DNA of 64,000 nucleotides from Bacteroidota bacterium (GTDB lineage: Bacteria > Bacteroidota > Ignavibacteria > Ignavibacteriales > Ignavibacteriaceae). The stretch is taken from the NCBI GenBank assembly GCA_021813585.1, contig JAKAJV010000015.1, positions 124,001-188,000 of the forward strand, read 5' to 3'. Shown here piece after piece: positions 23,369 to 60,387 of the stretch (position 1 is the stretch's first letter; the number at the start of each line of letters is the position of its first letter). The notes below the pieces were generated by a model that saw only the letters and a list, made by a program, of their open reading frames with translations, searched no databases and was not told the origin of the DNA. A program made the position numbers and the translations under genes.

Positions 23369-23850
23369 TTCTTTCCTCATTTTTTGTAATGTCTTATTAT
23401 CGAAAAATTTTTTTAGAAATTTACCATTAAGATTGAACGGCATGTATAAAACTATAGGCATCAATGTTGTCTTCCCAGATATAGCCGTCCTTAATAAGCC
23501 ATAGGAAATATTTCAATTTTGTTATACAAATGTGATGAATACGAGAACAGGTTAAGTTATTTTACTCTTATATTTAAAAACAAAAATATCTTTGCGGAAA
23601 AATTACTTCACGGTTACAATATTAAATAATTAGCAGGAGGGACTCTCTCCATGTGCAGCAAAATAATCTGTTTGAAAAGAAAATAATAAATGAGAAAAAT
23701 GTACCCTTCCGGTTTAGTCATTCCTCTTCAAATATTTATAAAAGATTACATGAAAGTTTATGATCTCTTTTTTGAATTTGAGGCGGCGGATCAAATGACC
23801 GAAATAATATTAGCGCTAGTACAGCTTACATTTTAGCAAGGAGAATTCAG
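23369..23850. other. Divergent intergenic region between chemoreceptor and symporter
   Basis: About 480 bases and AT-rich. Its only candidate content is an AGGAGGG ribosome-site-like run at 23634-23641 followed by a 10-codon frame (ATG at 23651), then the 48-codon frame listed separately. No clear promoter or hairpin was seen. Confidence 0.4.
23690..23836 (+). CDS. Possible 48-residue small protein upstream of the symporter
   Basis: An open frame from ATG 23690 to TAG 23836 gives a 48-residue peptide beginning MRKMYPSGLVIPLQIF and ending ILALVQLTF. It stops 14 bases before the symporter ATG, a spacing compatible with translational coupling. It has no recognised family and only a weak A-rich ribosome site. 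The composition is not obviously random (hydrophobic ends, acidic middle), but chance cannot be excluded. Confidence 0.25.
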   Translation: MRKMYPSGLVIPLQIFIKDYMKVYDLFFEFEAADQMTEIILALVQLTF

Positions 23851-25233
23851 ATGAGCTATGTTTTAACCTGGCAGTGGATTGTGCTGGTTTCATTCTCGGT
23901 TGTACTTATTTTAATTACTCCGTTCGTAAAAACCATTGAGAGCTTTTACAGGGGGACTTCCAGGGAAGCCAAAAGACCTGGAATAATAATGCTTACTTTC
24001 AGTCTCGTTATATCATGGATTTTTTCAAAGTCGGTTACAAATGCAGCGAACCTGGGACTCAGCTTCGGTATAGTAGGCGGTATTGCTTATGCAACTTATT
24101 ATCTTTCCTTCCTTGTAGCGGGAATAGTTATTTATAAAATAAGAACCGGCCTTAAGGTTCAAAGCCTTCATCAATTTCTGGAAAGAAAATTCGGCGCTGG
24201 CGCAGTAAAATTTTTTACAATCATTATTGCGGTCAGGCTTCTAAACGAAGTCTGGTCGAACACCGAAGTTATCGGAACCTATTTCGGAAGCACCGGCTCG
24301 CCGCAGTATATTATATCGATAATCGTGTTCACCATATTAACTCTTGTTTATGCTTTGAAGGGAGGCTTAAGAAGCTCCTTAATAACAGACCTGCTTCAGA
24401 TGAGTTTGTTTGTGGTTCTGCTGGTACTGGTCCTTGGAATGATTCTTCCCAAAGAGGGGTCGGTAACACCGTTCTTAACAAGCGGCAAGTGGTCGTTATC
24501 AGGCGGTGTTGACCTGGTACTTGTCGCTCTCATTCAAATTTTCAGCTACCCGTTTCACGATCCTATTCTTACCGACCGAGGTTTTATATCAGATGAAAAG
24601 ACTACTCTGCGCAGTTATATACTGGCAACGATCGGAGGCTTCCTTTGCATTTTGCTTTTTAGCTTCGTGGGTATTTATGCAAAGTTCCTTGGACTTAACG
24701 GCGAGGCTCCGGTAGAAGTATCAAAAACTCTCGGAGTCTTTTCAATGATCGTTATGAACTTCATTATGGTAACATCGGCATCGTCTTCTGTAGATTCCAC
24801 GTTTGCATCGGTCTCCAAGCTGGTGGTTGTCGATCTGGGTAAATCGAAAACCTCAATGGTCTCAAAAGGGAGATGGACGATGATAATAACGGCAATAGGC
24901 GGGACAATTCCTTTGTTGTTTTCTCCGGCAATTTTATCGGCTACTACTTTAAGCGGAACGATGGTGCTGGGATTAATGCCTGTATTTATTTTCTGGAAGA
25001 TACCGGCGCCTAAAATCTCGTTTCACCTTTCGCTGTGGGTAGGCGTAATAGCGGGTGCGGTTATGGTCTTCGGATGGCTGCCCAAATGGTTGTACTTAGG
25101 CCGCGGCTCGTTCGCCGATCTGCTTGCTGTAAATGTGTACGCCACGGTTTTAATTTTATTTGTTTATTTTGTACCGGCTCTTGCGGCGAGTAAAGTAAAG
25201 AAACCGAATGCACAGGCAATAGAACACGGATGA
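23851..25233 (+). CDS. Sodium:solute symporter family protein
   Basis: A 460-residue inner-membrane transporter with about 12 hydrophobic helices. Typical SSS-fold segments are VTNAANLGLSFGIVGG, IIAVRLLNEVWSNTEV, YALKGGLRSSLITDLLQM (the family's GGL.a...TD..Q signature), FSYPFHDPILTDRGF, and TSASSSVDSTFASVSKL with Ser/Thr residues expected at the Na2 site. It couples sodium entry to uptake of an unidentified small solute. AAGGAG lies before the ATG. A radical SAM/phosphoesterase pair follows 36 bases downstream, so the three may form one transcript. Confidence 0.88.
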   Translation: MSYVLTWQWIVLVSFSVVLILITPFVKTIESFYRGTSREAKRPGIIMLTFSLVISWIFSKSVTNAANLGLSFGIVGGIAYATYYLSFLVAGIVIYKIRTGLKVQSLHQFLERKFGAGAVKFFTIIIAVRLLNEVWSNTEVIGTYFGSTGSPQYIISIIVFTILTLVYALKGGLRSSLITDLLQMSLFVVLLVLVLGMILPKEGSVTPFLTSGKWSLSGGVDLVLVALIQIFSYPFHDPILTDRGFISDEKTTLRSYILATIGGFLCILLFSFVGIYAKFLGLNGEAPVEVSKTLGVFSMIVMNFIMVTSASSSVDSTFASVSKLVVVDLGKSKTSMVSKGRWTMIITAIGGTIPLLFSPAILSATTLSGTMVLGLMPVFIFWKIPAPKISFHLSLWVGVIAGAVMVFGWLPKWLYLGRGSFADLLAVNVYATVLILFVYFVPALAASKVKKPNAQAIEHG

Positions 25234-25269
25234 CACGGATTAAACAGATTTACACGGATAAAAATTAAA

Positions 25270-26154
25270 ATGAAGCACCCTGAAATATATCTTGATGCAC
25301 TTGATAACTTATGGTTCCAGGTAAGCGGAACGCTTTGCAACATAGTATGTGAACATTGCTTTATAAGCTGCAGCCCGGTTAATCATAGCTTTGAGTTTAT
25401 GTCCATCGCTCAGGTAAGCGCATATCTGGAAGAATCCGTTAAGCTGGGAGTGAAGGAATATTACTTTACCGGTGGTGAGCCTTTTATGAACAAAGAGATT
25501 CTCGATATACTGGAAAGAACCTTGAGCATTGGTCCGGCAACAGTTTTAACAAACAGTATGCTTATTAGACCGCATCATGCAAAAAGGCTAAAAGAAATTT
25601 CGGACAGTTCAATTTACTCGCTTGAAATGAGAGTAAGCATCGACGGCTACACGGAAGAGATGAACGATGTAATTCGCGGTAAAGGCGTTTTCAAAAAAGC
25701 TATGACAGGAGTAAAGCTGCTTGTAGATAACGGCTTTCTCCCGATTATTACAATTACAAAAACCTGGCAGGATAAAGACGATGATAAAGTCCTAACCGGT
25801 TTTATGGACACGTTAAAATCTTACGGCTATGCCAGACCGCGCTTAAAAATACTTCCTTCTTTAAAAATCGGGAAAGAAGCGGTCCGTACTAAAGGATATG
25901 ATGAATATGAATTCGTAACGCACGAAATGTTGGAAGATTATGAAATAAGAAATCTGATCTGCGCAAACAGCCGCATCGCCACGTCGAAGGGGGTTTATGT
26001 TTGTCCTATTCTTATAGATTCGCCAGATGCAAAATTAGGTGAATCACTTGAGGAGTCAATGACGCCATATGAATTGAAGCATCAAGCATGTTACACTTGC
26101 TATTTATTCGGCGCAATCTGTTCAAACTTTTCATCGACGAGTCATGATGCTTAG
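25270..26154 (+). CDS. Radical SAM protein with Cys-rich C-terminus
   Basis: A 294-residue radical SAM enzyme. The cluster motif CNIVCEHCF lies near residues 22-29, with YYFTGGEPFMN (GGEP, SAM binding) and VSIDGYTEEMNDVIRG following. The C-terminal 75 residues contain five cysteines (LICANSR, VCPIL, ACYTCYLFGAIC), a possible SPASM-like auxiliary cluster. Its end overlaps the start of the metallophosphoesterase gene by 11 bases, a strong sign of paired function. No precursor peptide was found upstream unless the 48-codon frame before the symporter plays that part, which is speculative. Product unknown. Confidence 0.82.
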   Translation: MKHPEIYLDALDNLWFQVSGTLCNIVCEHCFISCSPVNHSFEFMSIAQVSAYLEESVKLGVKEYYFTGGEPFMNKEILDILERTLSIGPATVLTNSMLIRPHHAKRLKEISDSSIYSLEMRVSIDGYTEEMNDVIRGKGVFKKAMTGVKLLVDNGFLPIITITKTWQDKDDDKVLTGFMDTLKSYGYARPRLKILPSLKIGKEAVRTKGYDEYEFVTHEMLEDYEIRNLICANSRIATSKGVYVCPILIDSPDAKLGESLEESMTPYELKHQACYTCYLFGAICSNFSSTSHDA

Positions 26155-26932
26155 AAAGATTGCATTGTTGGGAGGAGTGTACAGCAATTATCTTTCTCTT
26201 AAAGAGGTAATAAAGGATGCGAACAAAAGGAAGGTAGATGCGATTTATTGCCTGGGCGACCTCGGCGCTTTCGGTCCCCACCCCGATAAAGTTTTTCCGT
26301 TGCTTCTTCAGAATAATATCCATGTGGTCCAGGGCAATTACGATAATTCCATAGCAAACGATAAAGACGACTGCCAGTGCGGTTACACAGATCCGAGAGA
26401 TAATTACTTCGCACGCTTGAGCTATGACTACACATACAAAAATACGAGTGACGAATTTAAAAAGTGGATGAAGAATCTTCCCGCAGAAATAAGATTTGAA
26501 TTGGGGGATTATAAAGTTTTGCTTTGCCACGGCTCGCCCAGACAAATGAATGAATTCTTATGGGAGACAACTACGCCCACACACTTCCTGGAAAAATTAT
26601 GTGGTGATTTTAATGCAGATATAATCTGCGCAGCGCATACGGGAATTCATTGGAACAGAAAACTTGGCGGCGAAAAATATTTTATAAACGTCGGTGTTAT
26701 TGGCAGACCAGAAAACGACGGCAATACATTCGTAGGCTATACATTGCTTGAATTAAGAGAAGGAAAGATAAGTACAGAATATATTCCGGTCGAATACGAT
26801 TATAAAACCCTGGCGGAAGAGATGCGTAAAGAAAAGCTGCCGGAAGAATTTATTGAAACAATCCTTACCGGCTGGTGGGCTACTTGCCTGGAGATTTTGC
26901 CGGGTAAGGAAAGGGCTAAAGGAAAATACTAG
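26144..26932 (+). CDS. Calcineurin-like metallophosphoesterase with altered first metal motif
   Basis: A 262-residue protein of the YfcE/MJ0936-like calcineurin superfamily. CLGDLGAFGPHP holds the GD motif, VQGNYDNS the GNxD motif, LLCHGSP the later His, and ICAAHTGIHW a variant of GHTH. The first motif, normally D.HSN, reads GGVYSNY: both the Asp and His ligands are replaced. One metal site may therefore be lost or remodelled. A Cys pair (CQCGY) follows near residue 84. It is encoded overlapping the radical SAM gene, so it may act on that enzyme's substrate or product. Confidence 0.8.
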   Translation: MMLRKIALLGGVYSNYLSLKEVIKDANKRKVDAIYCLGDLGAFGPHPDKVFPLLLQNNIHVVQGNYDNSIANDKDDCQCGYTDPRDNYFARLSYDYTYKNTSDEFKKWMKNLPAEIRFELGDYKVLLCHGSPRQMNEFLWETTTPTHFLEKLCGDFNADIICAAHTGIHWNRKLGGEKYFINVGVIGRPENDGNTFVGYTLLELREGKISTEYIPVEYDYKTLAEEMRKEKLPEEFIETILTGWWATCLEILPGKERAKGKY

Positions 26933-27048
26933 TATTATTCTTTCAATTTCTCATTTAATTTTTTTGTTAAATTCCAGTGAATTAAAAAATCAATATAAGG
27001 CGATTAGAGCTATGATTACATTAAATCATCAATTCAACTTACTGCGAA

Positions 27049-27201
27049 ATGGGAATTGATGTAAGATGGTATGCGCAGCGCGGGCAGAACATAATCCACT
27101 CTTCATGTGTAGGCTGCGGAGTATGCGCGGCTGTATGTCCTAGAGGCGTACTTAAGCTGGAAAATCTTCCGTTAGCAGGAAGATTTAATGAATCGAAATA
27201 A
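27049..27201 (+). pseudogene. Fragment of a 4Fe-4S ferredoxin-type protein
   Basis: A 50-codon frame carries one complete ferredoxin motif, SCVGCGVCAAVCPRG, with flanking GIDVRWYAQRG and VLKLENLPL. Such segments are normally the C-terminal part of a larger iron-sulfur membrane or electron-transfer protein. Upstream the frame meets a TAA near 27021 and no homologous N-terminal part is visible. It is most likely a relic left by deletion; a free-standing mini-ferredoxin is the alternative. The rest of 26933-27494 shows no gene. Confidence 0.55.
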
Positions 27202-27494: not shown

Positions 27495-29315
27495 ATGATT
27501 GGGAAGGTACTTTCTCATTACAAAATTATAGAAAAGCTTGGCGAAGGCGGAAACGGCGTAGTTTACAAAGCCGAAGATACAAATTTAAAACGTACCGTTG
27601 CGTTAAAGTTTCTTTCTCAATTCTTTTCTTCAGATGAAGAATCGAAACGAAGATTTATTTACGAGGCGCAGAAAGCCTCGGCATTAGACCATCCCAACAT
27701 ATATACCATTCATGAAATTGGACAGACCGACGAAGAGAAGTTGTTTATTTCGATGACGTACTATGATGGAGAAAATTTAAGGGAAAGAATTAAAAGCAAG
27801 GGAGTAAAAAAAGAAGAGGCTGCTGAAATCGCAATTCAAATTTGCGAAGGACTGAATAAGGCACATCAAAACAACCTTGTCCATAGAGATATTAAGCCCG
27901 CAAACATTTTTCTTACAAAAGACGGAATAGTTAAGATACTGGATTTCGGATTAGCTAAAGAGAAGGGGCAGTCTCATTTAACTAAAGAGGGAACTACTCT
28001 GGGTACTGTTGCGTATATGTCGCCTGAACAGGCAAGAGGCGAGGACGTAGACCAGAGGACAGACATCTGGTCGCTTGGAATAGTTATGTATGAAATGCTC
28101 ACCGGCAAGCCTCCGTTTGATGCCGATTATTACCAGGCGACAATTTATTCAATACTTAATACAAAGCCGGAGCTTAACAAACTTCCAAAAGAATTTACTC
28201 CAATCATAAAGAAGGCTCTGGCCAAACCGGTTAACGAAAGGTATCAAAATACAGAAGAGCTTTTAGTTGATTTAAATTTATTGAGAAGTGGATTTCCGGC
28301 TAAGCATTATTTCTCAACTCATGCTTTTTTAAAAAGCTTTAAAGTGAAATTAGCTGCTGCAGCTATTATAATTATTTTACTCGCTGTAATTTCATTCCTT
28401 GTTATAAAGAAACCTGCAGTTGAGCATTCAACAATAGAAGAGAGAAAGATAGTTGTTGTTTTTCCTTTTGAGAATCTTGGCTCGCCGGATGACAAATATT
28501 TTGCCGAAGCGATAGCGCAGGAAATTACCAGCAAGCTTGCATCGATACAAGAGATTAGCGTAATCTCATCAAAGAGTGCAAAAAGATTTTTTGATTTAAA
28601 GATGAGTACAATGGAAATAAGCAGCGAGCTGGGTGCCAATTACATCCTTGAAGGAACGGTAGCATGGGCTAAGACAAACGATAAGAAGAGCACCGTCAAA
28701 ATAATTCCGGAGCTCACCAGGGTTTCGGATAATACAATCGTCTGGTCGGACTCGTATGATAAAATTCTTGACGATATTTTTTCGGTTCAGGATGAAATGG
28801 CCAGGAACGTTTCTGAAAAAATCAACGGCTCATTGATCCCGGCAAAAAATACGGAGGCTGAATCTCCTACCGGAAACATGGGCGCGTACACTTATTATCT
28901 TAAAGGGCTGGATTATGAAAACCGATGGTATGTCTTCAAGGAAGATTTCCAGAAGAGAGTTTCTTTATTTAAGAAAGCCATAGAATTAGATCCAAAGTTT
29001 GCTGGGGCGTATGCTCATCTGTCTATAGCCGAATCAGGTTTGTTTGGGTTATACTTTGACCGTAATGAAAAGACTGCCGCCGAAGCACTTGAGTATGCAG
29101 AAAAAGCTTATCACTTAAATCCAAGTCTTGCAGATGTTCACTTTGCGCTTGCTTATTATTACGCAAGCTGCGGCGGAAATTTTGTCTTACCTGTAAAGAT
29201 TAAAATCCCTTCTCCCCCGATCGCCTGTGAACCGGCGATGTCAGTCTCTAAGTCATCGCCGATCATAAAAAAAGAATTGTCTTTGCCAAAGCCAAGCTTC
29301 CTCAATGCAGCTTGA
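27495..29315 (+). CDS. Ser/Thr protein kinase with TolB-like and TPR region, 3'-truncated
   Basis: A membrane kinase. The Hanks-type domain spans residues 1-270: LGEGGNGVVYKAED (P-loop), VALKF (Lys), HRDIKPAN, LDFGLAK and GTVAYMSPEQARG. One transmembrane helix lies near 283-303. An extracytoplasmic TolB/FlgO-like region follows (VVFPFENLGSPDDKYFAEAI, YILEGTVAW, IVWSDSYD), then TPR repeats from about 465. From about residue 555 (base 29160) the sequence stops looking like TPR and runs as the antisense of the HAD gene tail, ending after another 52 residues. Related kinases continue with more TPRs, so this one is truncated at a rearrangement joint. Confidence 0.85.
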   Translation: MIGKVLSHYKIIEKLGEGGNGVVYKAEDTNLKRTVALKFLSQFFSSDEESKRRFIYEAQKASALDHPNIYTIHEIGQTDEEKLFISMTYYDGENLRERIKSKGVKKEEAAEIAIQICEGLNKAHQNNLVHRDIKPANIFLTKDGIVKILDFGLAKEKGQSHLTKEGTTLGTVAYMSPEQARGEDVDQRTDIWSLGIVMYEMLTGKPPFDADYYQATIYSILNTKPELNKLPKEFTPIIKKALAKPVNERYQNTEELLVDLNLLRSGFPAKHYFSTHAFLKSFKVKLAAAAIIIILLAVISFLVIKKPAVEHSTIEERKIVVVFPFENLGSPDDKYFAEAIAQEITSKLASIQEISVISSKSAKRFFDLKMSTMEISSELGANYILEGTVAWAKTNDKKSTVKIIPELTRVSDNTIVWSDSYDKILDDIFSVQDEMARNVSEKINGSLIPAKNTEAESPTGNMGAYTYYLKGLDYENRWYVFKEDFQKRVSLFKKAIELDPKFAGAYAHLSIAESGLFGLYFDRNEKTAAEALEYAEKAYHLNPSLADVHFALAYYYASCGGNFVLPVKIKIPSPPIACEPAMSVSKSSPIIKKELSLPKPSFLNAA

Positions 29316-29866
29316 AAATAAAACGGAGACGGCTTACCGATTAACACTGCTTCCTTACCTGATGCATATTCAATTGCAGCTACAAAGGCACCGGCATCAA
29401 GCGACAAATTTTTCCCGTCCGGCTGCCAGAATTTATTTTTCTGCATTGCAATAATTTCTGCGCCGGCGTGAACTTTTCTGAAAATTTCATTTAGAATTTT
29501 ATACGACCACTCTTCTCCCAAATCGCCTATTACAACTGCATCCGGATTCTTATCGTCAATAAGCTCTTTAAATTCCTTTTTAACGTTATGAATGCAGTAA
29601 ACAGAAACGCGCAGATTCCTTTCCTTTATGTATGCCAAAGTCACATCAATAGTCGTCATTGCATTAACATGAAGACTAATTCCCTTTTTATTTAAGAATT
29701 GAAGAACTTCTTGTGAAGTGTTTCTGGTAGAATTTGTAATTATACAAGAAGGAATTTTATTTTCATTAAGAAAGTCAAACATTTCCGCAGCTCCGCCGGC
29801 AAGCTTATCTCCAGGCCGGATAATGCCGTCGAAATCTATTAAGACTGGTAAGTCATGTTTTGTCAT
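29159..29866 (-). CDS. HAD-family phosphatase, probably C-terminally truncated
   Basis: A 235-residue protein of the LHPP/NagD-like HAD group. The nucleophile motif is VLIDFDGIIRPG, motif II SCIITNSTRN, and motifs III/IV VLIGKPSPF and MIGDDLETDIAGSQ. After GILIFTGKTKF the family usually runs another 20-30 residues; here the frame ends in PPQLA, which overlaps the kinase frame. The truncation coincides with the kinase breakpoint near 29160-29185. Active-site residues are all upstream, so activity may persist. Substrate unknown. Confidence 0.82.
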   Translation of the reverse strand: MTKHDLPVLIDFDGIIRPGDKLAGGAAEMFDFLNENKIPSCIITNSTRNTSQEVLQFLNKKGISLHVNAMTTIDVTLAYIKERNLRVSVYCIHNVKKEFKELIDDKNPDAVVIGDLGEEWSYKILNEIFRKVHAGAEIIAMQKNKFWQPDGKNLSLDAGAFVAAIEYASGKEAVLIGKPSPFYFQAALRKLGFGKDNSFFMIGDDLETDIAGSQAIGGEGILIFTGKTKFPPQLA

Positions 29867-43804: not shown

Positions 43805-46774
43805 ATGAAACGAAAGATTACCGTCCTGTTTTTCTTGTTGTTTCTGCCTATGCTAGTTTATGCGGGAACAACCGGAAAAATAAAAGGTAAAGTTGTAGAT
43901 CTCCAAACGGGCGAGCCGCTGATAGGAGCCAACGTAATTGTAGTTGGTACCTCCTTTGGCGCCGCGACCGATGTAAAAGGAGAATATATTATCAGCAACT
44001 TGGATGCCGCAGTGTATGATGTTAAAGCATCGTACCTGGGTTATAAAACCGTTACGGTATCCAACGTTCGCGTTAATGCCGATCTTACTACCGAATTAAA
44101 CTTCCAGCTTCCCGCTACCGGCGTTTCTGTTGGCGAAGTTGAAATTGTGGCCAAAAGACCCCTGATTAACAAGAGCAATACAAACGCTATTCGCACCACT
44201 ACAAATGCGGAAATAGACGCATTGCCGGTGCGCGGTGTTGATAACATTGTTGCTCTTACTCCGGGTGTTATTCTTCAGAACGGAACCATATATGTTAGAG
44301 GCGGCCGCCAGGATGAAGTAGGCTATTACCTGGAAGGAACCAATATTACCAGCGCATACTCAGGCAACCGCCAGGTTACCATTCCGCAGGATGCATTGGA
44401 AGAAATTCAAGTACAGGCCGGAGGCTATACAGCTGAGTTCGGCGGTGCTAATGCCGGCATTATCCGTACTCAATTAAAGTCGGGTGGACCCACGCTTAAG
44501 GCCAGCCTGGAATACATTACCGATAACTGGGCTTTCAAAGGCAAAAATAAGCGATACGATGGAAAACAGAATTTGGGAACCTATTCCTACGGGTATAACG
44601 ATATTATCGGTACGTTAAGCGGTCCTATCTACGAAAACAAAATTAAGTTCTTCGGCTTATTCGAGAACCTGTCTCAGTCCGATGGTACACCTCTCCCGGT
44701 TGACGGATTTAACCTAGGAGTTGTAGGTGACCCTGAAAGCGGAGACACTTTAAGTATTAGCTACCCCGGCGGACCCAGACCGGGCAATCTCTCTACGCAG
44801 TATACCGGAACGGCTACCTTTACGTTTGATTTTAATCCGTTGATAGTCCGTTTAATCGGAACTTATACAACTCGCCAAAGCCGTAACGCGGCCAGTATTT
44901 ATAATATGTTCGATATGAATAGACAGGGTATTGTAAATAACAATAACGGCGACTTCGGAATTAAAGTAACGCATATCTTGAGTCCGAATACTTATTACGA
45001 AATAAGCGCTGGTTATATCTTTAACCAAGGTGAAACTTACGACCCGTACTTAAAGGCTAATTATCTATCTTATGGAGATAGTGCAGCTAACGCTAATGCA
45101 GGCGCAGTTTGGAATAGGAGAGCCAGAGAGCAGAGCATTGGTTACGACGGCCAATACAACCAGCCTTTGGCTTATACCATGTTTAACTTCCTGTTCAGCG
45201 CACCCAACGCCCCGCTGTCGGGTTATGGAAAATCTAAAAACGAAAACATCAACATGAATGCATCCTTTTCAACAACATTGAGCAAAGAACACTCAATAAA
45301 ATTTGGTGGAGAGCTGCAGTTGATGACATTTAGAAACTTTAGTCCGGCATACAATGCTGCAAACACATTGAACCTTGCTCAAAGTATTGCTTCCAACCCG
45401 AACAAGACAGTTCACGAAATTCAGATAAGCAACGGAGCTAATAACTACGGCTACGACCTGGATGGAAATGTTTATTCGGGCTCTTCAAATTATGCAACCG
45501 GGCAAATAGCCCCTAAGAAACCCGTCTTTGCCGGAGTATATGTCGAAGACAGGATGGAGTACAAAAATTTAATAGTTAATGCAGGTATTCGTTACGACTA
45601 TATAAATACGGATAACAATATGCTGATAGACCCGACGCGTCCAGAAAAATCTATTGATATTAATACCGGCGCTATCATTCCTTCCGGATTTGTAAAAGTT
45701 CCTTCTTACAGCAGTGTAAGCCCTAGGTTAGGCTTCTCATTCCCGGTTACCGATCAAACAGTATTCCATGCTCAGTTCGGTAAATTCGTTCAGCAGTCTA
45801 GACTGCAGGATGAGTATTTAGGTATTTATGCTCTGTCATATCAATTAAGAGGCGGTTACTTCTTCTCGCAGCCTGTTGGACAAAATGTTCGTCCAGTTAG
45901 AACAACTCAATACGAAATAGGCTTCACCCAGCAGATCGGCACCTTCGCTTCGGTTGATATTACAGGCTATTACAAAGATATTGCCAACCAGGTAATCTTT
46001 GATGTACAAAACGTAGCAGCCGGCTCGCCGTACCAGGCGTACACAACATTAACCAACGGCGATTATGCTACAACCAAAGGTGTTGAGCTTGCATTCAACA
46101 TGAGAAGAATGGAAAGATTAATGATTAACGGTTCCGTATCCTTCCAGGATGCTAAGGGAACAGGCTCTAATCCGTATTCGGATTCCGGTCCGTTCGGCGG
46201 CCCCGTTGATCCGGAACATGTTTTTGTTCCTCATTTTATTAATCCGCTGCCGTTTAATCATGATCTAAGCGGAAACCTGAGTTTCGATTATAGGTTCGGT
46301 AAAGATGACGGCCCTGTTGTACTGCAAGAGTTCGGCGCTTCGGTATTGTTGACTTTCGCAAGCGGCCATCCATATACATTGGGTTCCGGCGGTACTAATA
46401 TTGAAACAGATACCAGAACCAGGTCGCCTATTGAGCCGATAAATTCATCAGTAACTCCTTCTACTTTCCAGGTCGATCTGCGCTTGGATAAAACCGTTCA
46501 ATTATACGATAGGCTGTCTGCTAATATTTACATCTATGCAATAAATATTTTTAATGCTAAAAACATTATTAACGTATTTACTAGAACCGGCTCGGCAACA
46601 GACGACGGCTTCCTTTCGGATCCTAATTTGGGCCAGCCGCTTGTTGAAAGATACGGCGCTCAATACGCGCAGATGTACCAGGTAATTAACCTCGCTTACG
46701 GATATGGCTATCCAAACGGTAATCTTTACGGTCCTCCGCGTCAAATTAGACTTGGCATTCGTTTAGAATACTAA
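43805..46774 (+). CDS. Large TonB-dependent receptor, cassette 1
   Basis: A 989-residue outer-membrane receptor. A signal peptide ends near YAGTTGKIKG; then a carboxypeptidase-regulatory-like beta domain (about 22-105: GKVVDLQTGEPLIGANVIV, GTSFGAATDVKGEY), a plug (about 125-240: TLTP-type ALTPGV, IYVRGGRQDEVGYYLEG, GGYTAEFGGANAGIIRT), and a barrel ending in IRLGIRLEY. The layout is that of SusC/Oar-like receptors, but no SusD partner is present; instead a ~1100-aa cargo and a PorV-like protein follow. It is paralogous to the gene at 54043, almost identical over the first 240 residues. Ligand unknown. Confidence 0.92.
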   Translation: MKRKITVLFFLLFLPMLVYAGTTGKIKGKVVDLQTGEPLIGANVIVVGTSFGAATDVKGEYIISNLDAAVYDVKASYLGYKTVTVSNVRVNADLTTELNFQLPATGVSVGEVEIVAKRPLINKSNTNAIRTTTNAEIDALPVRGVDNIVALTPGVILQNGTIYVRGGRQDEVGYYLEGTNITSAYSGNRQVTIPQDALEEIQVQAGGYTAEFGGANAGIIRTQLKSGGPTLKASLEYITDNWAFKGKNKRYDGKQNLGTYSYGYNDIIGTLSGPIYENKIKFFGLFENLSQSDGTPLPVDGFNLGVVGDPESGDTLSISYPGGPRPGNLSTQYTGTATFTFDFNPLIVRLIGTYTTRQSRNAASIYNMFDMNRQGIVNNNNGDFGIKVTHILSPNTYYEISAGYIFNQGETYDPYLKANYLSYGDSAANANAGAVWNRRAREQSIGYDGQYNQPLAYTMFNFLFSAPNAPLSGYGKSKNENINMNASFSTTLSKEHSIKFGGELQLMTFRNFSPAYNAANTLNLAQSIASNPNKTVHEIQISNGANNYGYDLDGNVYSGSSNYATGQIAPKKPVFAGVYVEDRMEYKNLIVNAGIRYDYINTDNNMLIDPTRPEKSIDINTGAIIPSGFVKVPSYSSVSPRLGFSFPVTDQTVFHAQFGKFVQQSRLQDEYLGIYALSYQLRGGYFFSQPVGQNVRPVRTTQYEIGFTQQIGTFASVDITGYYKDIANQVIFDVQNVAAGSPYQAYTTLTNGDYATTKGVELAFNMRRMERLMINGSVSFQDAKGTGSNPYSDSGPFGGPVDPEHVFVPHFINPLPFNHDLSGNLSFDYRFGKDDGPVVLQEFGASVLLTFASGHPYTLGSGGTNIETDTRTRSPIEPINSSVTPSTFQVDLRLDKTVQLYDRLSANIYIYAINIFNAKNIINVFTRTGSATDDGFLSDPNLGQPLVERYGAQYAQMYQVINLAYGYGYPNGNLYGPPRQIRLGIRLEY

Positions 46775-46814
46775 TGTTAGACAGCTAATACAAAAAGAAT
46801 AGGAGTTTAAAAAT

Positions 46815-49800
46815 ATGAATTATAAGAAAATTAAATACTTACTTATTTTAATAGTAGGTATAATGTTTCTAGTACCCGTTGGAGTTAATGCCAAGGGGGA
46901 TAGAAAAGATAACAAAGGGATGAAGAAAACCCTTGAAGATCAAATTGCCAATACATATATAAACATTAATAATGTAATGGCTCTGCAATCCAACCAGGGA
47001 TTCAGCGATTACAACCTTAATTCCAACCTGGGCGGAACTGTGTTTCCCAAAGGCAGCGGCAGAACCTGCATCTTCGAATCTGGGTTTTTGTGGGGCGGCT
47101 TTGTTGCCAACGATCCCCAGGTTAGAGTAGGCGGTTCCGCTTATATCTCCGGCATACAGCCCGGCCCTATCTTGGATAACGGTCAGGCAGATGCTAATCC
47201 AAGCGATCCTAAATGGAGAGTATATAGAGTTAGGCCGGATGTCTATCCCGGCGGCCCGGCTATCGATCTTAGCAGCTATGCCCAGCTGGAAGGTACTACC
47301 GCCGATGCTTTAAGACAGCAGTACGAAAAAGACTGGAATGAATGGCCGGCAGTAGGAACAGCAAACAATCTAGGCGCGCCATTCCTGGATAAAAACGGCG
47401 ACGGCAAATACGATCCCGCCGTTGATGTTCCCGGCGTTCCCGGCGCAGACCAGACTGTTTATTATGTTTCTAACGATATGGACGGAGGAAAAACCGTAAA
47501 AATGTACGGTACACAACCTCTCGGCCTAGAAGTACATGCTACGTTCTGGGCCTATGCTCAGCAGGGCGCACTCGGTAATATGTATTTTAAAAAGTTCACT
47601 ATTGTAAATAAGGGATTTCAAAAATATTCTATAGATAGTATGTTCGTATCCTGGTGGGCAGATATCGATCTCGGCGATGCAACAGACGATTTGGTAGGAA
47701 ACGATACCACATTGAGTTTAACATACTGTTATAACGGCTACCCGGAGGATGCAACTTATGCACCTCTTCCTCCTCCGGCAGATGGTGCGGACTTTTTCCA
47801 GGGGCCGATCGTTCCCGGTGAGCCGACCGATGTAGCTCAATTCGGAGGAAGAATGATACCCGGGAAGAAGAATCTCCCGATGACCGCAGCTTACTTCTTC
47901 GTTAACGGCGTAGCTGCCTACAGTGATCCGGATCAGGGAGTACCGATAGGATCGACTCAATTCTATTGGCTCTTTAACGGATTGAACGGAATCTCCGGTC
48001 AGGAAGTTACAAATCCCATTACCGGTCAGGTAACAAAATTTGCATTTACCGGCGATCCGGCTACACAGACTGGCTGGGTTGACGGAAAAGACTTACCTCC
48101 GGGAGACCGCAGGCAGGGTATGGCCTCCGGTCCTTTCAATATGGCGCCGGGCGATACGCAGGAAGTTGTTGTTGCCGAAGTATTCGCCGGAGCTATACCG
48201 GGCGTAAGCAATATTCAAGCAATTGCACTATTAAAGTTTTATGATAGGACAGCACAGGCTGCCTACGATCTCTTCTTCCAGCTGCCTTCACCTCCGCCTG
48301 CACCCAAGCTGAATGTTGTTGCACAGGATAAAAAGGTTGTTCTGGATTGGGGTGAAGATGCGGCTGCCATTAATCTTACAGAGAATACGGTAATTAAAGG
48401 CTATGCATTCCAGGGATATAATGTTTACCAACTGCCTAACAGAGCCGCAACCATTAGCCAGGCGGTTAAGTTGGCTACCTACGATATTATTGACGGTGTA
48501 ACTAAAATAACCGATGAAGATTTTGACCCTGTTACCGGGCAATTCTATCAGAAGCTTGTTGAAGACGGAACCGATGCGGGAATTCAAAGATCTTATTTGG
48601 TTACTACAGATGCATTCAATTCAAATAATCCGTTAATTAACGGAACAAAATATTTCTTTGCTGTTACTGCGTACAGCTATAATCCGGATGCTATTCCTCG
48701 CGCAGTTGAAAACCCGATTTCAATAATAACCGTAACTCCGCAGAGTCCTAATCCGGGAGTTTCGTACGCAATGGCATCGGGCGATACTATTAAGTCGGTT
48801 CATTCGGCAGGAAAAAGTGAAGGACAGGTCATCCCTCTGGTAGTCGATCCTACCAAACTGACCGGGCATGACTACAAAGTTACGTTCGATACCGCAGGCG
48901 GCACTACAACCTGGGCGATAACCGATGTTACAACCGGTGAAGTTAAATTATCCAAGCAGACAAATCAATCCGGCGATAACAGCTACACCTTTGTTGACGG
49001 TATGATGATTAAGGTCGTCGGTCCCCCAACCGGTATGAAAGCCGGCGGACAAGGTGAAGGCTGGGATATACCGAAAGGCACAAGAAGATTTACATGGGCA
49101 GGCGGTGCAGCAGGGTTCGGATTTGAAGGCTTCAGCGGAGCGATTGGTTATTCGTCTCCGGATAATTTCTTCAATGGAGATCCGATGACTGTACCTGCTC
49201 AAAACACGCTGCTTACATTAGCCCAGGTTACCGATACTTCACTATATAATCCGGTATTTCCATCAAACGATGTAAACATGTCTTACGGATATCGTTACTT
49301 AAGAGGCCCGGGTGCACCGGCACAGCCTCAGTTTGCACCATATATAATTAATACAACCGGCGGTACATATCCGTATCAGGATTATAATAAATCCGTACCG
49401 ATGTCTGCATGGAATATTGAAGACCCGGCTCACGCAATAAGGCTTAACTTAGGCTATCTGGAAAATAATAAGATACGCGGATTAGTAGACGGCAAATACT
49501 GGCCGCCGGATTACAGTCAACGTGATAATACTGCCGCGAATGATTCTCGCGAGTGGCTGTTTATCTTTAATGAAGAATACAGCGAGACTGCAAAAGCCAG
49601 TGACCAGGTTGATGTAATCAACACGCCTCTACCGATTATGTGGTTCTGTACTATTGCCAGACGAGGAGCGGTGCCGTTTTCACCAAATGCTACCGGCGAT
49701 GATCAGTTTGTAATCTATGCCAATCATCCGAACGGGGTTAGCGATGTATTCACGTTCAAGTCGGTGGCTCCTTCGTATTCTACTGCTAATGCAAAGCAGG

Positions 49801-50117
49801 ATGTAAATAAGATTAATGTATTCCCGAATCCGTATTACGGAGTTAATCCCCAAGAGTTAAACAAGTATTCGCGGTTTGTAACATTTAACCATCTGCCTAC
49901 AAGTGCTGTAATACGAATATTCAACCTGGCAGGTACAATGGTTAAAACAATAAACCACAGCGGTTCGCAATTCGATTCGTGGGATCTTACGAACGAATCC
50001 GGCCTGCCGGTTGCAAGCGGCCTTTACATTGCATACATAGATATGCCGGATATAGGCGCAACCAAAATACTTAAAATAGCAATCATTCAAGAACAACAGT
50101 ATCTTGATAGATTTTGA
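46815..50117 (+). CDS. ~1100-residue exported protein with T9SS-like C-terminus, cassette 1
   Basis: An 1100-residue exported protein. A signal peptide (LLILIVGIMFLVPVGVNA) is followed by a large domain of unknown fold (about 50-480), with a calcium-loop-like DKNGDGKYDP near 195. A fibronectin III-like segment begins at PPPAPKLNVV (about 495). The final about 95 residues (INVFPNPYYGVNPQELNK ... SGLYIAYIDMPD) are a variant T9SS sorting domain with PNPYYG in place of PNPFNP. The protein is predicted to be placed on the cell surface. It is paralogous to 57046; the gene starts 40 bases after the receptor, with AGGAG before the ATG. Confidence 0.82.
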   Translation: MNYKKIKYLLILIVGIMFLVPVGVNAKGDRKDNKGMKKTLEDQIANTYININNVMALQSNQGFSDYNLNSNLGGTVFPKGSGRTCIFESGFLWGGFVANDPQVRVGGSAYISGIQPGPILDNGQADANPSDPKWRVYRVRPDVYPGGPAIDLSSYAQLEGTTADALRQQYEKDWNEWPAVGTANNLGAPFLDKNGDGKYDPAVDVPGVPGADQTVYYVSNDMDGGKTVKMYGTQPLGLEVHATFWAYAQQGALGNMYFKKFTIVNKGFQKYSIDSMFVSWWADIDLGDATDDLVGNDTTLSLTYCYNGYPEDATYAPLPPPADGADFFQGPIVPGEPTDVAQFGGRMIPGKKNLPMTAAYFFVNGVAAYSDPDQGVPIGSTQFYWLFNGLNGISGQEVTNPITGQVTKFAFTGDPATQTGWVDGKDLPPGDRRQGMASGPFNMAPGDTQEVVVAEVFAGAIPGVSNIQAIALLKFYDRTAQAAYDLFFQLPSPPPAPKLNVVAQDKKVVLDWGEDAAAINLTENTVIKGYAFQGYNVYQLPNRAATISQAVKLATYDIIDGVTKITDEDFDPVTGQFYQKLVEDGTDAGIQRSYLVTTDAFNSNNPLINGTKYFFAVTAYSYNPDAIPRAVENPISIITVTPQSPNPGVSYAMASGDTIKSVHSAGKSEGQVIPLVVDPTKLTGHDYKVTFDTAGGTTTWAITDVTTGEVKLSKQTNQSGDNSYTFVDGMMIKVVGPPTGMKAGGQGEGWDIPKGTRRFTWAGGAAGFGFEGFSGAIGYSSPDNFFNGDPMTVPAQNTLLTLAQVTDTSLYNPVFPSNDVNMSYGYRYLRGPGAPAQPQFAPYIINTTGGTYPYQDYNKSVPMSAWNIEDPAHAIRLNLGYLENNKIRGLVDGKYWPPDYSQRDNTAANDSREWLFIFNEEYSETAKASDQVDVINTPLPIMWFCTIARRGAVPFSPNATGDDQFVIYANHPNGVSDVFTFKSVAPSYSTANAKQDVNKINVFPNPYYGVNPQELNKYSRFVTFNHLPTSAVIRIFNLAGTMVKTINHSGSQFDSWDLTNESGLPVASGLYIAYIDMPDIGATKILKIAIIQEQQYLDRF

Positions 50118-50148
50118 TTAAAAGAAGTTTAAAACTCAAGGAGTGAAA

Positions 50149-51180
50149 ATGAAAATAACATTTAAATTTTTAATTGTCGCAGCTATACTCCTAATGGGAG
50201 TAGATAGTATGTACGCAGGCGGCGGTGTTCGTAACGGTACGGGCGGAGCTACTCAGCTTTTAATCCCGGTCGGTACACGCGGTATAGCAATGGGCGGGGC
50301 CAATGTTGCCACAGCTACTGGCATAGAAGCACTCTTCTGGAACCCTGCAGGCGCCGCAGAAATGAATAACTCGGCAACACTATTGTTCTCTCACATGAAT
50401 TATATTGCCGACATTGGAGTTGAATACGGAGCCGTCTCGGCAAACTTTGAAGGCTTCGGAGTTATTTCGTTAACTATAAAATCCCTGGCAATAGGCAGCA
50501 TAGATGTAACCACAGTTGACCAGCCGGACGGAACCGGCCAGACATTTACACCGCAAATGCTAACTGCCGGCGCATCCTATTCCAGGCAGCTTACGGATCG
50601 CATCGCAATCGGCCTTACTGTAAACTATATATCCGAGTCGATTGACCAAGTAAGCACCACCGGCTTTGCACTAAATGCAGGCGTAATGTATAGAGACCTT
50701 GGTGACATAAGCGGATTAAGCTTCGGGCTGGTATTAAAAAACCTCGGCCCTCAAATGAGCTACTCCGGCCCCGGAATGCTTGTTAAAGCATCGCCGAGCG
50801 GATTGGACAGGCCGCCCAGTTACTATTCAATTAATACGGCGGCGTTTGACCTGCCATCTTCATTCGAGCTCGGCTTAGGCTACAACCCGGTTCTAGACGA
50901 CATGAATGCCCTACAGGTTTCTGCATCGTTCCAGAACAATAACTTTTCCGGCGATGTTTACAATGTAGGCGCTGAATACGGCTATAATAAAATGTTCTTT
51001 GTAAGAGGCGGATACGCCATGTCTCCTAAGAACCAGGATGTAAATTATATTTACGGCTTAACTGCCGGTGCAGGTATCGACTATATGATGGGCGGCGTTG
51101 ACCTGAAAGTTGATTATGCATACAGAGCCGTAAAATATTTCGGAGGCAATCACATATTCTCGGTCTCTTTAGGGTTCTAA
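50149..51180 (+). CDS. PorV/PorQ-family outer-membrane protein, cassette 1
   Basis: A 343-residue beta-barrel protein. The ATG at 50149 was chosen over the GTG two codons upstream because AAGGAG is correctly spaced and the start then equals that of its paralogue. The signal peptide ends in SMYAGGG. Typical PorV/PorQ segments follow: VGTRGIAMGGANVATATG and LFWNPAGAAEM near residues 45-70, with a C-terminal strand ending in SVSLGF. PorV binds T9SS sorting domains and shuttles cargo to the surface; the family also includes FadL-like barrels. Placement directly after a T9SS-like cargo gene favours a dedicated shuttle. Confidence 0.85.
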   Translation: MKITFKFLIVAAILLMGVDSMYAGGGVRNGTGGATQLLIPVGTRGIAMGGANVATATGIEALFWNPAGAAEMNNSATLLFSHMNYIADIGVEYGAVSANFEGFGVISLTIKSLAIGSIDVTTVDQPDGTGQTFTPQMLTAGASYSRQLTDRIAIGLTVNYISESIDQVSTTGFALNAGVMYRDLGDISGLSFGLVLKNLGPQMSYSGPGMLVKASPSGLDRPPSYYSINTAAFDLPSSFELGLGYNPVLDDMNALQVSASFQNNNFSGDVYNVGAEYGYNKMFFVRGGYAMSPKNQDVNYIYGLTAGAGIDYMMGGVDLKVDYAYRAVKYFGGNHIFSVSLGF

Positions 51181-57006: not shown

Positions 57007-57045
57007 AATTTGGCAGCAAATACTAAAAGTATAGGAGTTTAAATT

Positions 57046-60000
57046 ATGAATTTAAAAAAATTAAGATACTTGCTTATTATAATAGTAGGTATACTGTTTC
57101 TTGTTCCCGTAGGCGTATTGGCCAAGGGCAACAAAAAGGAAAGAAGAGAAATATACAAGACCAATGCTTCACAGATTACTACTACATATATCGATATAAA
57201 CAATCTGGTGGCTTTGCAATCAAATCAAGGTTACAGCGATTACAACGCTAACCCCAACCTTGAAGGAACCGTATTCCCCAAAGGCAGCGGCAAAACTGCA
57301 GTGTTCGAATCAGGCTTTCTGTGGGGAGGCTATGTTAACGGAGATTTTTCTCAGGTAAGAGTGGGCGGTTCGGCATATATCTCCGGCATTCAGCCCGGCC
57401 CTATTTTGCCAAACGGCCAAGCTGCAGATCCAAGCGATCCTAAATATCAAATATACAGAGTTAGACCGGATGTTTATCCCGGCGGACCTGCTATCGATCT
57501 AAGTTCCGACGCTCAGAACGAAGGCATTCCGGCCGATCAAATTAGAGCACAGTACGAGAGTGATTGGAATAATTGGCCTGCCGCAGGTACAGCTAACGAT
57601 CTTGGAGCCCCTTTCCAGGATAAGAACGGCGACGGAAAGTATGAGCCCAACATAGACGTACCCGGCGTTCCCGGTGCAGATCAAACTGTATTTTACGTAG
57701 CCAACGATATGGACGGCGGCAAGACAACAAAAATGTACGGTACCCAGCCGCTGGGTATTGAAGTTCAGGCTACATTCTGGGCGTACGCTCAGCAGGGCGC
57801 CCTCGGCAATATGTATTTTAAGAAATGGTCTATTATTAACAAAGGCGCTCAGAAAAATACAATCGATAGTATGTTCGTTTCTTTCTGGGCAGACGTAGAC
57901 TTAGGCGATGCCAACGATGATCTCATGGCTTCCGATACTACATTAAGCATGTTGATTGCTTATAACGGCGGGCCTACGGATGCAGTTTATTCACCACTGC
58001 CTCCTCCGGCAGACGGCTTTACTTTCTTCCAGGGTCCTGTAGTTCCCGGCGAACCGACCGACTCGGCAATATTTATTGAGCCGCCGTTTAACTTCCAGGA
58101 AGTTCAAGGCAAAAAGAATTTGCCAATGACCTCGGCTTATTTCTTTGTTAACAGCGATCCTAACTTCGGCGATCCGCCGCAGGGTGAAGCTTTAGGTTCT
58201 ACAGAGTTCTATCGTTTCTTTAACGGCGAATACGGAATTTCCGGCGCACCGTTTATTAACCCTGTTACAAACGCACCTACAAAGTATGCTTTCTCTGGAG
58301 ACCCTGTCACTCAAACAGGTTGGATGGATGGAACAACAATACCGCCCGGCGACCGTCGTTACGGTTCTGCTTCCGGTCCATTCACAATGGCCCCCGGCGA
58401 TACACAGGAAGTGGTAGTAGCAGAAATTTTTGCGGGTGCTATTCCGGGCGTAAGCTATCTGGCAGCTATCAGCCTGTTAAGGTTCTATGACCGAACCGCG
58501 CAGTCCTCTTACAACAACTTCTTCCAGTTGCCCAGCCCGCCGCCCGCACCTAAGGTTAATATAGTTGCACTAAACAATAAGGTGCTTCTAGACTGGGGTG
58601 AAAATACAGCAGCAATAAATGCAACGGAGAACACCGTTATTAAAGGCTATACCTTTGAAGGCTACAATGTTTACCAGCTGCCCAGCCAGGGTGCCTCTGC
58701 AAGCCAGGCAAAGTTATTGGCAACATACGACCTGGTTGACGGCGTTACAAAAATTACCGACGAAGATTTTGATCCCAACTCAGGCCAATTATATCAGAAG
58801 CTTGTTGAGAACGGAACCGATTCTGGAATCAAAAGATCATTCATAGATTCTGTAGATGTTTTTAATGGGAACAACCCACTAATTAATGGAACCAGATATT
58901 ACTTTGCAGTAACTGCATATAACTATAATGCAAACGCCACGCCTCATGCAGTTGAAAACCCGATGACTGTAATTACGGTAATTCCGCAGTCGCCAAATCC
59001 CGGAGTAAGGTATACATCCCAGCCTGGCGATACAATTAAATCCGTTCACGCATCAGGTAAAAGCGAAGGCTCGGTATTCGCCCTGGTAATCGATCCTACA
59101 AAATTAACCGGCGATCAGTACAAGGTTACATTCGATACGACAGGCGGCACTACAACCTGGTCGTTAACTGATGTTACTAAAAATTCTGTTGTTCTTACAA
59201 AGCAAACAAACCAGTCCGGCGACAATAGTTATGCATACGTAGACGGAATGGAAGTTAAGGTTATCGGTCCGCCGCCCGGAATGAAAGACTGGTCTATACC
59301 GCAAGGTACAAGAAGATTTACATGGGCAAACAATGCCGGCGGATTTGGGTTTGAAGGATTTAGCGGCGCTATAGGTTGGGCTGCTCCAAGTACTTTATTC
59401 GGAGACGGGGTAGAACCTGTTCCGGCAAGCAACCTTTCAAATACACTTTTAACATTAGCTCAGGTTTCGGATACATCTCTGTATAATCCTACATTCCCGG
59501 GCGCCTCAGATGTTAATATGTCTCTCGGCTACAGATACGGAAGAGGATTTGCAAATGCACCTGCTCAACCGCAGTTTGCACCCTACATTGTAAACGCATC
59601 CGGCGGATATTCATATCAAGATTATAATTTGGATGTTCCGTTATCGGCATGGAATGTTGAGGACCCTGCTCACCCGGCAAGACTTGCAGTAGGATTTTTA
59701 GAGAATAACGCAGCCAGCGGTTTGGTTGATGGAAAATACTGGCCGCCGGATTACAGCCAGTTAGATAATACTGCAGGCAGCGGGCCGCGCGAATGGTTGT
59801 GGATTTTCCAGGCACCTTATAGTACTACTCCAAATGCGGCATTTCAAGTTGAAGCAATAAGCAACGATTTGCCGATTATGTGGTTCTGCACCTTTGCAAG
59901 AAGAGGACCGGTTCCGTTCTCTCCGGATAAGACCGGCGAAGACCAGTTCTTGATATTAGCTAACCATGTAAACGCGTCTGCCGATCAATTTACATTTACA

Positions 60001-60357: not shown

Positions 60358-60387
60358 TTAAGAAAAGTTTAAACTCAAGGAGTAAAA

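What the first reader, a model, noticed from the sequence alone, without database searches (positions are those of the whole stretch)
23690..27201. Symporter + radical SAM + degenerate phosphoesterase: possible undescribed small-molecule pathway
The radical SAM and phosphoesterase genes overlap by 11 bases and follow a sodium symporter by 36. The radical SAM protein has five C-terminal cysteines suggestive of an extra cluster. The phosphoesterase has lost the Asp and His of its first metal motif (GGVYSNY) but keeps the other motifs. A 48-codon frame precedes the symporter and a ferredoxin fragment follows. Together this could import and modify a phosphorylated or peptide substrate.
Basis: partly seen in the sequence, partly recalled or inferred. 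Interest (0 to 1): 0.6.

Follow-up and report, generated by a model that had tools for sequence, protein, structure and literature searches.

The report
Radical enzyme pair linked to arsenic
Three neighbouring bacterial genes include a radical enzyme and a phosphoesterase relative that has lost part of its metal site; the two travel together across several bacterial phyla, and in some other bacteria the radical enzyme sits beside, or is fused to, an arsenic-methylating enzyme, so the genes probably handle arsenic compounds rather than an ordinary phosphate or peptide.

Summary
In detail: at 23851-26932 lie a symporter (SSS), a radical SAM protein (rSAM) and a metallophosphoesterase (MPE) with GGVYSNY, the last two overlapping by 11 bases. 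rSAM and MPE are old partners: of 53 rSAM relatives in several phyla, 37 have the MPE in the same locus; 15 of 18 genomes whose locus lacked a whole MPE have one elsewhere. GGxYxN is a subfamily feature. The MPE also lost GNH and GHTH, but keeps four residues expected to hold the second metal. The 48-codon frame is a porin remnant and the ferredoxin frame the tail of a NapH-like gene; the symporter was found only in this genus. New: 6 of 53 loci hold an arsenite-methyltransferase-family gene (ArsM), and in 9 of 33 rSAM-positive Planctomycetota genomes the rSAM is fused to an ArsM domain. Best reading: a system that handles organoarsenicals, with a radical SAM family distinct from ArsS and, by architecture, from ArsL. 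The chemistry is inferred; the window's locus has no ArsM, and the nine fused genomes lack the MPE variant.

The parts
23690..23836 (+). 48-codon frame: remnant of an OprP-type (Porin_O_P) porin gene that stands whole in front of the symporter in a sister species (L031); not a gene of its own
   Evidence: tblastn of the sister porin: 55.6% over 27 aa, E 3e-6 (L031); 50% over 30 aa, E 5e-7 (L024); same frame. L031 porin is Porin_O_P, E 1.1e-9. No Pfam match of the frame itself
23851..25233 (+). sodium/solute symporter (SSS superfamily, divergent); the transporter of this genus's version of the unit
   Evidence: TIGR00813 E 5e-6, 26 of 184 bits; 69-70% identical in three sister species in the same place; no PDB match at E 1e-5
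25270..26154 (+). radical SAM enzyme: CX3CX2C plus five invariant C-terminal cysteines that suggest an auxiliary-cluster domain
   Evidence: Radical_SAM E 1.7e-16; best named model Rv1681 family, 103 of 380 bits, ArsS 54 of 300 bits; invariant columns in 54 sequences; model pLDDT 93.6, nearest solved BlsE and SkfB
26144..26932 (+). variant metallophosphoesterase: residues of metal site 1 and the catalytic His replaced, residues of metal site 2 kept (assignment from general knowledge of the superfamily)
   Evidence: Metallophos_2 E 8.7e-12; model pLDDT 90.6, nearest solved SapH Ap4A hydrolase 3qfn; D39, N65, H129, H165 invariant, and Y13, Y66, G167 invariant, in 37 sequences
27025..27201 (+). 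C-terminal remnant of a NapH-like membrane ferredoxin gene; the rest of it, and the FAD oxidoreductase gene that precedes it in sister species, were not found in this stretch
   Evidence: 87% over 53 aa to the ends of whole genes in three sister species; 106-bit profile match; the only match in G000 at E 1e-15

Best explanation
The rSAM-MPE pair is the core of a system that handles arsenic compounds. The radical SAM enzyme most likely forms or rearranges a carbon-arsenic bond on arsenite or a methylated arsenical, as ArsS does for arsenosugars and ArsL for arsinothricin, but it is a separate family. The MPE variant, with one metal site left, most likely serves as its binding partner or acts on the phosphorylated or nucleotide-like part of the product. 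Different carriers (SSS with an OprP-type porin in this genus; MFS or PiT elsewhere) would move substrate or product. Shown: strong though not perfect pairing, motif loss, ArsM neighbours in some loci, and ArsM fusion in a sister clade. Inferred: the C-As chemistry, the role of the MPE, the role of the carriers, and that the window's unit, which has no ArsM beside it, does the same job as its relatives.
For: Pairing: MPE on the same strand in 36 of 53 rSAM loci, 30 of them within 150 bases, and in one more on the opposite strand; 15 of 18 genomes tested because their locus had no whole MPE have one elsewhere in the assembly. Of the 24 unfused rSAM genomes of the Planctomycetota sample, 20 have the MPE in the locus and 2 elsewhere. 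Arsenic: an ArsM-family gene in 6 of 53 loci (five of the six scanned by NCBIfam), in five of them on the same strand in the same run of genes: Calditrichota L027, L028, L030; Ignavibacteria L035; Planctomycetota L076 (L053, opposite strand). About 0.14-0.27 would be expected if ArsM density is 1-2 per 3.9 Mb (rough; loci not independent). L028 reads FAD protein, ArsM, PiT, rSAM, MPE. In L076 a MIP channel follows ArsM. In 9 of 33 rSAM-positive genomes among 392 Planctomycetota the rSAM domain (306-336 bits) is fused to an ArsM domain (three of the nine scanned). Cysteines at the ArsM positions are invariant in six of six. In the quick tree the window groups, support 93, with Calditrichota, three of which carry ArsM. 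Radical SAM enzymes that make C-As bonds are known (PMC12159101, passages).
Against: 47 of 53 loci show no ArsM in the fetched flanks (up to 6 kb a side, many cut by contig ends), among them all 15 records titled Acidobacteria or Acidobacteriota and the three sister species; the window has none either. ArsM over cut-off is in 49 of 59 related genomes, so its presence in a genome says little, and G005, which has the trio, shows no strong match (79% complete). The fused proteins form a separate clade and none of those 9 genomes has the MPE variant, so the fusion speaks for the rSAM family and not directly for the pair. G558, with an unfused rSAM of 414 bits, and G502 have no MPE variant, nor do G059 and G074. 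TIGR04282 genes of G000, G002, G003, G008 and G009 lie in an unrelated sugar locus. The ArsM proteins scanned (five of six, and three of nine fusions) score under the NCBIfam cut-offs.
Confidence: 0.5

Rival explanations
1. The pair imports and modifies an ordinary phosphorylated small molecule or nucleotide, with no arsenic; the MPE binds the nucleotide like its Ap4A-hydrolase relatives, and ArsM is a hitch-hiker.
For: Nearest solved MPE is the Ap4A hydrolase SapH; nearest solved rSAMs include BlsE and viperin-like enzymes, which act on nucleotide substrates (recalled); a porin of the phosphate-selective type and PiT carriers could serve phosphate; most loci lack ArsM.
Against: ArsM in 6 of 53 loci in several gene orders and as a fusion in 9 genomes is hard to put down to hitch-hiking.
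Confidence: 0.25
2. The genes belong to arsenic resistance gene groups but act only as helpers, for example in redox or repair, without making a C-As bond.
For: A FAD protein in 31 of 56 loci with a weak ArsO resemblance in the one tested at E 1e-5 (30 of 425 bits); a MIP channel and PiT carriers nearby.
Against: Fusion to ArsM suggests a shared substrate. I made no family scan of the neighbours for ArsR, ArsB, Acr3 or ArsC, so their absence is not claimed.
Confidence: 0.12
3. A peptide (RiPP) maturation system with a short precursor.
For: The rSAM resembles peptide maturases by fold (SkfB, SuiB, EpeE) and has auxiliary-cluster-like cysteines.
Against: The one candidate precursor, the 48-codon frame, is a porin remnant; in 30 of 53 loci rSAM and MPE lie so close that there is little room between them. 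No systematic search for other short frames was made.
Confidence: 0.04
4. A decaying remnant operon without function in this organism.
For: The porin gene and most of the NapH-like gene survive here only as scraps, and the FAD oxidoreductase gene was not found in this stretch, while sister species have them.
Against: The three frames are open with the conserved residues; dN to sister species is 0.15-0.25 while dS is saturated or not computable.
Confidence: 0.07

Closest known systems
ArsS, arsenosugar radical SAM enzyme (TIGR04167)
   Same: radical SAM enzyme that works with ArsM (PMC8552651 passage); here too ArsM and TIGR04282/TIGR04283 genes lie near some members
   Different: only 54 of 300 bits, over residues 12-156; far apart in the quick tree; ArsS over cut-off in 3 of 56 genomes with this rSAM and in none of the four trio genomes
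ArsQML arsinothricin cluster (ArsL radical SAM, ArsM, ArsQ permease)
   Same: radical SAM + ArsM + permease; the ArsM of L035, L053 and L076 scores best against the arsinothricin ArsM model, under its cut-off
   Different: ArsL is described as 428 aa with CX3CX2C at residue 194 and only three conserved cysteines (PMC8552651, passages); here 294 aa, motif at residue 23, eight conserved cysteines. No direct comparison with an ArsL sequence was made
Rv1681-family radical SAM protein (NF049973)
   Same: highest-scoring named model for the rSAM
   Different: 103 of 380 bits, residues 22-183 only; a paper search gave four tuberculosis papers in the listing, none opened
SapH (Spr1479) Ap4A hydrolase and the Pyrococcus proteins 1nnw/2gju
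   Same: nearest solved structures by sequence and fold, nearly whole length
   Different: SapH keeps SDIHGN and GHIH (and has GNW); the Pyrococcus proteins have lost more of the motifs; the present family stands between them

Membership tests
ArsS (TIGR04167) | score over the curated cut-off (300 bits) along the whole length | tested here: not met
   53.9 bits, residues 12-156 only; three fused homologues 63-71 bits
ArsS (TIGR04167) | adenosylation of a methylated arsenical | not testable with these tools
   needs an enzyme assay
ArsL / arsinothricin system | ArsL architecture, long part before CX3CX2C, three conserved cysteines | tested here: not met
   motif at residue 23 of 294 and eight invariant cysteines against residue 194 of 428 and three (PMC8552651 passages)
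ArsL / arsinothricin system | sequence similarity to ArsL | not tested
   no ArsL sequence was fetched; one search shows only 25 of 48 matched models
Radical SAM superfamily | CX3CX2C in a Radical_SAM domain | tested here: met
   PF04055 61.3 of 29.5 bits; cysteines invariant in 54 sequences
SPASM/twitch auxiliary-cluster domain | match to a SPASM model or its cysteine spacing | tested here: inconclusive
   no Pfam SPASM match at E 0.1; five invariant C-terminal cysteines, C-X13-C and C-X2-C-X6-C; SPASM spacing recalled
Calcineurin-like phosphoesterase superfamily | Pfam match and fold | tested here: met
   PF12850 45.7 of 27 bits; fold matches
Catalytic two-metal phosphoesterase | DxH, GD, GNH[DE], H, GHTH | tested here: not met
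   DxH, GNH and GHTH absent in 15 of 15 and 20 of 20 members checked and in the 37 aligned; present in 8 of 8 outgroup MPEs L184-L191
Arsenite methyltransferase (neighbour gene) | conserved cysteines of ArsM | tested here: met
   C53, C54, C81, C176, C226 (numbers of L030) invariant in six of six; that most ArsM have four conserved Cys: PMC8552651 passage; which positions they are is recalled
Arsenite methyltransferase (neighbour gene and fused domain) | curated NCBIfam cut-off | tested here: not met
   NF008823 (263): L027 202, L030 202, L159 181, fusions L150, L151, L153 238-242; NF040538 (500): L035 357, L053 340, L076 348. L028 and six fusions not scanned

The most novel reading that the evidence does not exclude
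A third radical SAM route to organoarsenicals, not in the papers I could search, spread over Planctomycetota, Acidobacteriota, Calditrichota and Ignavibacteria-like bacteria, in which a phosphoesterase was stripped of one metal site and its catalytic His and turned into a dedicated partner of a C-As bond-forming enzyme.
Probability: 0.4. Interest if true: 0.8.

Novelty: new variant of a known kind. Interest (0 to 1): 0.6.

Why it matters
A 2025 review names two kinds of radical SAM enzyme that make carbon-arsenic bonds, one for arsenosugars and one for arsinothricin (PMC12159101, passages). A further family, fused to an arsenite methyltransferase domain in some bacteria and tied to an altered phosphoesterase in others, would widen the known arsenic cycle to phyla that are known here mostly from metagenome-assembled genomes, and would give a direct test of what a phosphoesterase fold with a single metal site does. 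It would also give a meaning to genes for which the curated models used here give no specific name.

Tried and rejected
A RiPP precursor in the 48-codon frame: rejected, it is a porin remnant. The ferredoxin as a part: rejected, tail of a NapH-like gene. The symporter as a general part: rejected, found only in this genus among the loci fetched. TIGR04282 as arsenic evidence inside the genus: rejected. 6 of 13 genomes have it over the cut-off (all four with the trio, two without), but in G000, G002, G003, G008 and G009 it lies beside sugar and other glycosyltransferase genes; only in G005 (L031) is it near the trio. ArsM presence in a genome as evidence: rejected, it is over the cut-off in 49 of 59 relatives. 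The CxC motif of the MPE as a new metal site: not claimed, outgroup MPEs with intact motifs have a like CxC. MPEs not linked to the rSAM in 13 Planctomycetota stretches: no match beside them to the neighbour profiles used. The careful tree did not finish; the quick tree, rooted at the midpoint for drawing only, is cited.

Papers: PMC8552651, PMC12159101, PMC7826186 and PMC5552862 were seen as passages only; the last two gave nothing on this pair. The listings of searches (20 of 33 shown; none found; none found) showed no title on the pair or the fusion; two gave unrelated papers; 92 was too broad to tell (8 of 4,539 shown). Only open-licence PMC papers are in that library, so this is not proof of novelty.

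Rows dropped: L077 (cut by the contig end) and L078, L079 (distant rSAMs) were left out of the 53-locus counts. L168 repeats L076 and L171 repeats L047 (equal contig lengths); loci L150-L181 were therefore not added to the 53. The locus of G070 was not fetched again. L026 is counted as having the MPE in its locus although the gene is cut by the contig end.
Full report
What is there. The window lies in assembly G000, contig C83; records of the sister species are titled Bacteroidetes MAGs, and 'Ignavibacteria-like' is my reading. At 23851-26932 three genes run on the plus strand: a divergent sodium/solute symporter, a radical SAM protein 36 bases behind it, and a calcineurin-like phosphoesterase that overlaps the radical SAM gene by 11 bases.

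Conservation of the unit. In the genus, 4 of 13 genomes have the rSAM, and all four have the trio (G000, G005, G008, G009). Proteins are 67-79% (rSAM), 76-77% (MPE) and 69-70% (symporter) identical to the window's. dN is 0.15-0.25 while dS is saturated or not computable, so all three genes are under selection. A scan of one genome per species found 56 loci, of which 53 are whole relatives of the rSAM, in records titled Bacteroidetes, Ignavibacteria, Calditrichaeota, Planctomycetota, Acidobacteria, Latescibacterota, candidate division GN15 and, once, Deltaproteobacteria. The MPE is in the same locus in 37 of 53: 36 on the same strand, 30 of these within 150 bases, and one opposite. Of 18 genomes tested because their locus had no whole MPE, 15 have it elsewhere in the assembly; the other three are G059, G074 (contig ends 34 bases behind the rSAM) and G076 (MPE cut by the contig end). 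In the window's phylum 1 of 395 sampled genomes has the rSAM at E 1e-50, in the phylum of G076 7 of 40, and in the phylum of G070 33 of 392 at E 1e-60: patchy spread. Of these 33, nine are fused (below); of the other 24, 20 have the MPE in the locus, two elsewhere (G070, G835), and two not at all (G558, and G502 with a divergent rSAM). The pairing is thus strong but not perfect.

The phosphoesterase. Motif I is GGxYxN in 38 of 38 members aligned, 15 of 15 unlinked copies, and 20 of 20 in further Planctomycetota loci, a few of which repeat loci. Against SapH (SDIHGN) and the Sphaerobacter MPE (SDVHAN) the Asp and His of motif I are gone. So are the His of GNH (Tyr here; SapH itself has GNW) and the second His of GHTH (Gly here). 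D39, N65, H129 and H165 are invariant; these are the residues expected to hold the second metal (from general knowledge of the superfamily). The best-scoring outgroup MPEs in my comparison, from genomes with the fused rSAM (L184-L191), have DxH, GNHD and GHTH in 8 of 8, so the loss looks derived and belongs to the rSAM-linked clade. The model is confident (pLDDT 90.6) and the fold is nearest to an Ap4A hydrolase.

The radical SAM protein. Three N-terminal and five C-terminal cysteines are invariant in 54 sequences; the further cysteine of HCFISC is not. The best named model is the Rv1681 family, 103 of 380 bits; ArsS scores 54 of 300. The nearest solved structures are BlsE and SkfB.

The side observations. 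The 48-codon frame is a remnant of an OprP-type porin gene, which stands in front of the symporter in L031 and, split by a stop codon, in L024; none was found in L025. The ferredoxin frame is the tail of a NapH-like membrane ferredoxin gene; three sister species have a whole copy behind an FAD oxidoreductase gene. Both neighbours have decayed in the window's genome.

Who else is there. A FAD protein is in 31 of 56 loci, mostly directly before the rSAM. Carriers differ by group: SSS in this genus, MFS in 10 Acidobacteria loci, a PHO4/PiT permease in L028 and L030, a sodium:sulfate-type symporter in L029. An ArsM-family gene lies in 6 of 53 loci: L027, L028, L030, L035, L053 and L076 (all but L028 scanned by NCBIfam). 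In five it stands in the same run of genes, at differing positions; in L028 the order is FAD protein, ArsM, PiT, rSAM, MPE, one directly after another. In L076 a MIP channel follows ArsM. Cysteines at the ArsM positions are invariant in the six. A rough chance figure for the 530 kb of loci is 0.14-0.27 ArsM genes; the density used is an assumption guided by relatives, and related loci are not independent. 47 of 53 loci show no ArsM in the fetched flanks, among them all Acidobacteria loci.

The fusion. Among the 33 Planctomycetota genomes with the rSAM, 9 encode one protein (open frames of 608-627 codons) with the rSAM domain in front (306-336 bits) and an ArsM domain behind (three scanned by NCBIfam). 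The C-terminal cysteines of the rSAM are kept in the nine. In the quick tree the fused proteins form one branch beside the MPE-linked clade, both far from four ArsS proteins (midpoint root, for drawing only). In L159 an ArsM gene stands directly before a divergent rSAM gene. Fused genomes lack the MPE variant: best scores 77-96 bits in eight and no match in G844, against about 450 for true members. TIGR04283- or TIGR04282-type genes lie near several fused genes (L150, L153, L155, L156; weaker matches in L152 and L157).

Reading. A fusion and repeated operon membership with ArsM tie the rSAM family to arsenic better than to any other subject that I found. Radical SAM enzymes that make carbon-arsenic bonds are known for arsenosugars and arsinothricin (PMC12159101 and PMC8552651, passages). 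By the tests made, this family is not ArsS, and its architecture is not that of ArsL. The step from 'arsenic neighbourhood' to 'C-As bond former' is inference, and the role of the MPE is open: partner subunit, or an enzyme with one metal. The window's own unit has no ArsM beside it, though G000 has an ArsM gene over the cut-off elsewhere (C132). Hence 0.5 for the main explanation.

Novelty. ArsS is over its cut-off in only 3 of 56 genomes with this rSAM, so in most of them it does not accompany the known arsenosugar enzyme. Searches of open-licence papers showed no account of the pair or of the fusion; subscription papers were not searched.

Noticed in passing
window 43805-51180 and 54043-61419: Two copies of a three-gene set: TonB-dependent-receptor-like protein (989/987 aa), a large protein without Pfam match (1100/1103 aa) and a PorV-like protein (345/343 aa); it looks like a tandem duplication whose middle gene is unknown.
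   Followed up: partly
window 27495-29315: Serine/threonine kinase gene (Pfam) whose 3' end overlaps a HAD hydrolase gene on the other strand (29159-29866); the kinase may be truncated.
   Followed up: partly
L150-L158: Radical SAM-ArsM fusion proteins in nine Planctomycetota genomes, a find in its own right; the tools did not tell the host orders.
   Followed up: partly
L184-L191: MPEs with intact motifs in fused-rSAM genomes share a CxC (CGC or CRC) with the variant family (CQC), of unknown use.
   Followed up: no
L150 2968-3345: A frame about 4 kb before the fused gene that reads like an ArsR-type regulator (by eye, not tested).
   Followed up: no
L024, L025, L031 and L146: FAD oxidoreductase plus NapH-like membrane ferredoxin module behind the trio in sister species; in G002 the NapH-like gene lies at a contig end with stops inside, and no rSAM ortholog was found in that assembly.
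   Followed up: partly
L026 1524-1913 and L030 2978-3358: A small protein that resembles the four-helix type often seen inside ribosomal RNA genes (recalled, not tested) lies between the FAD gene and the rSAM gene in two Calditrichota loci.
   Followed up: no
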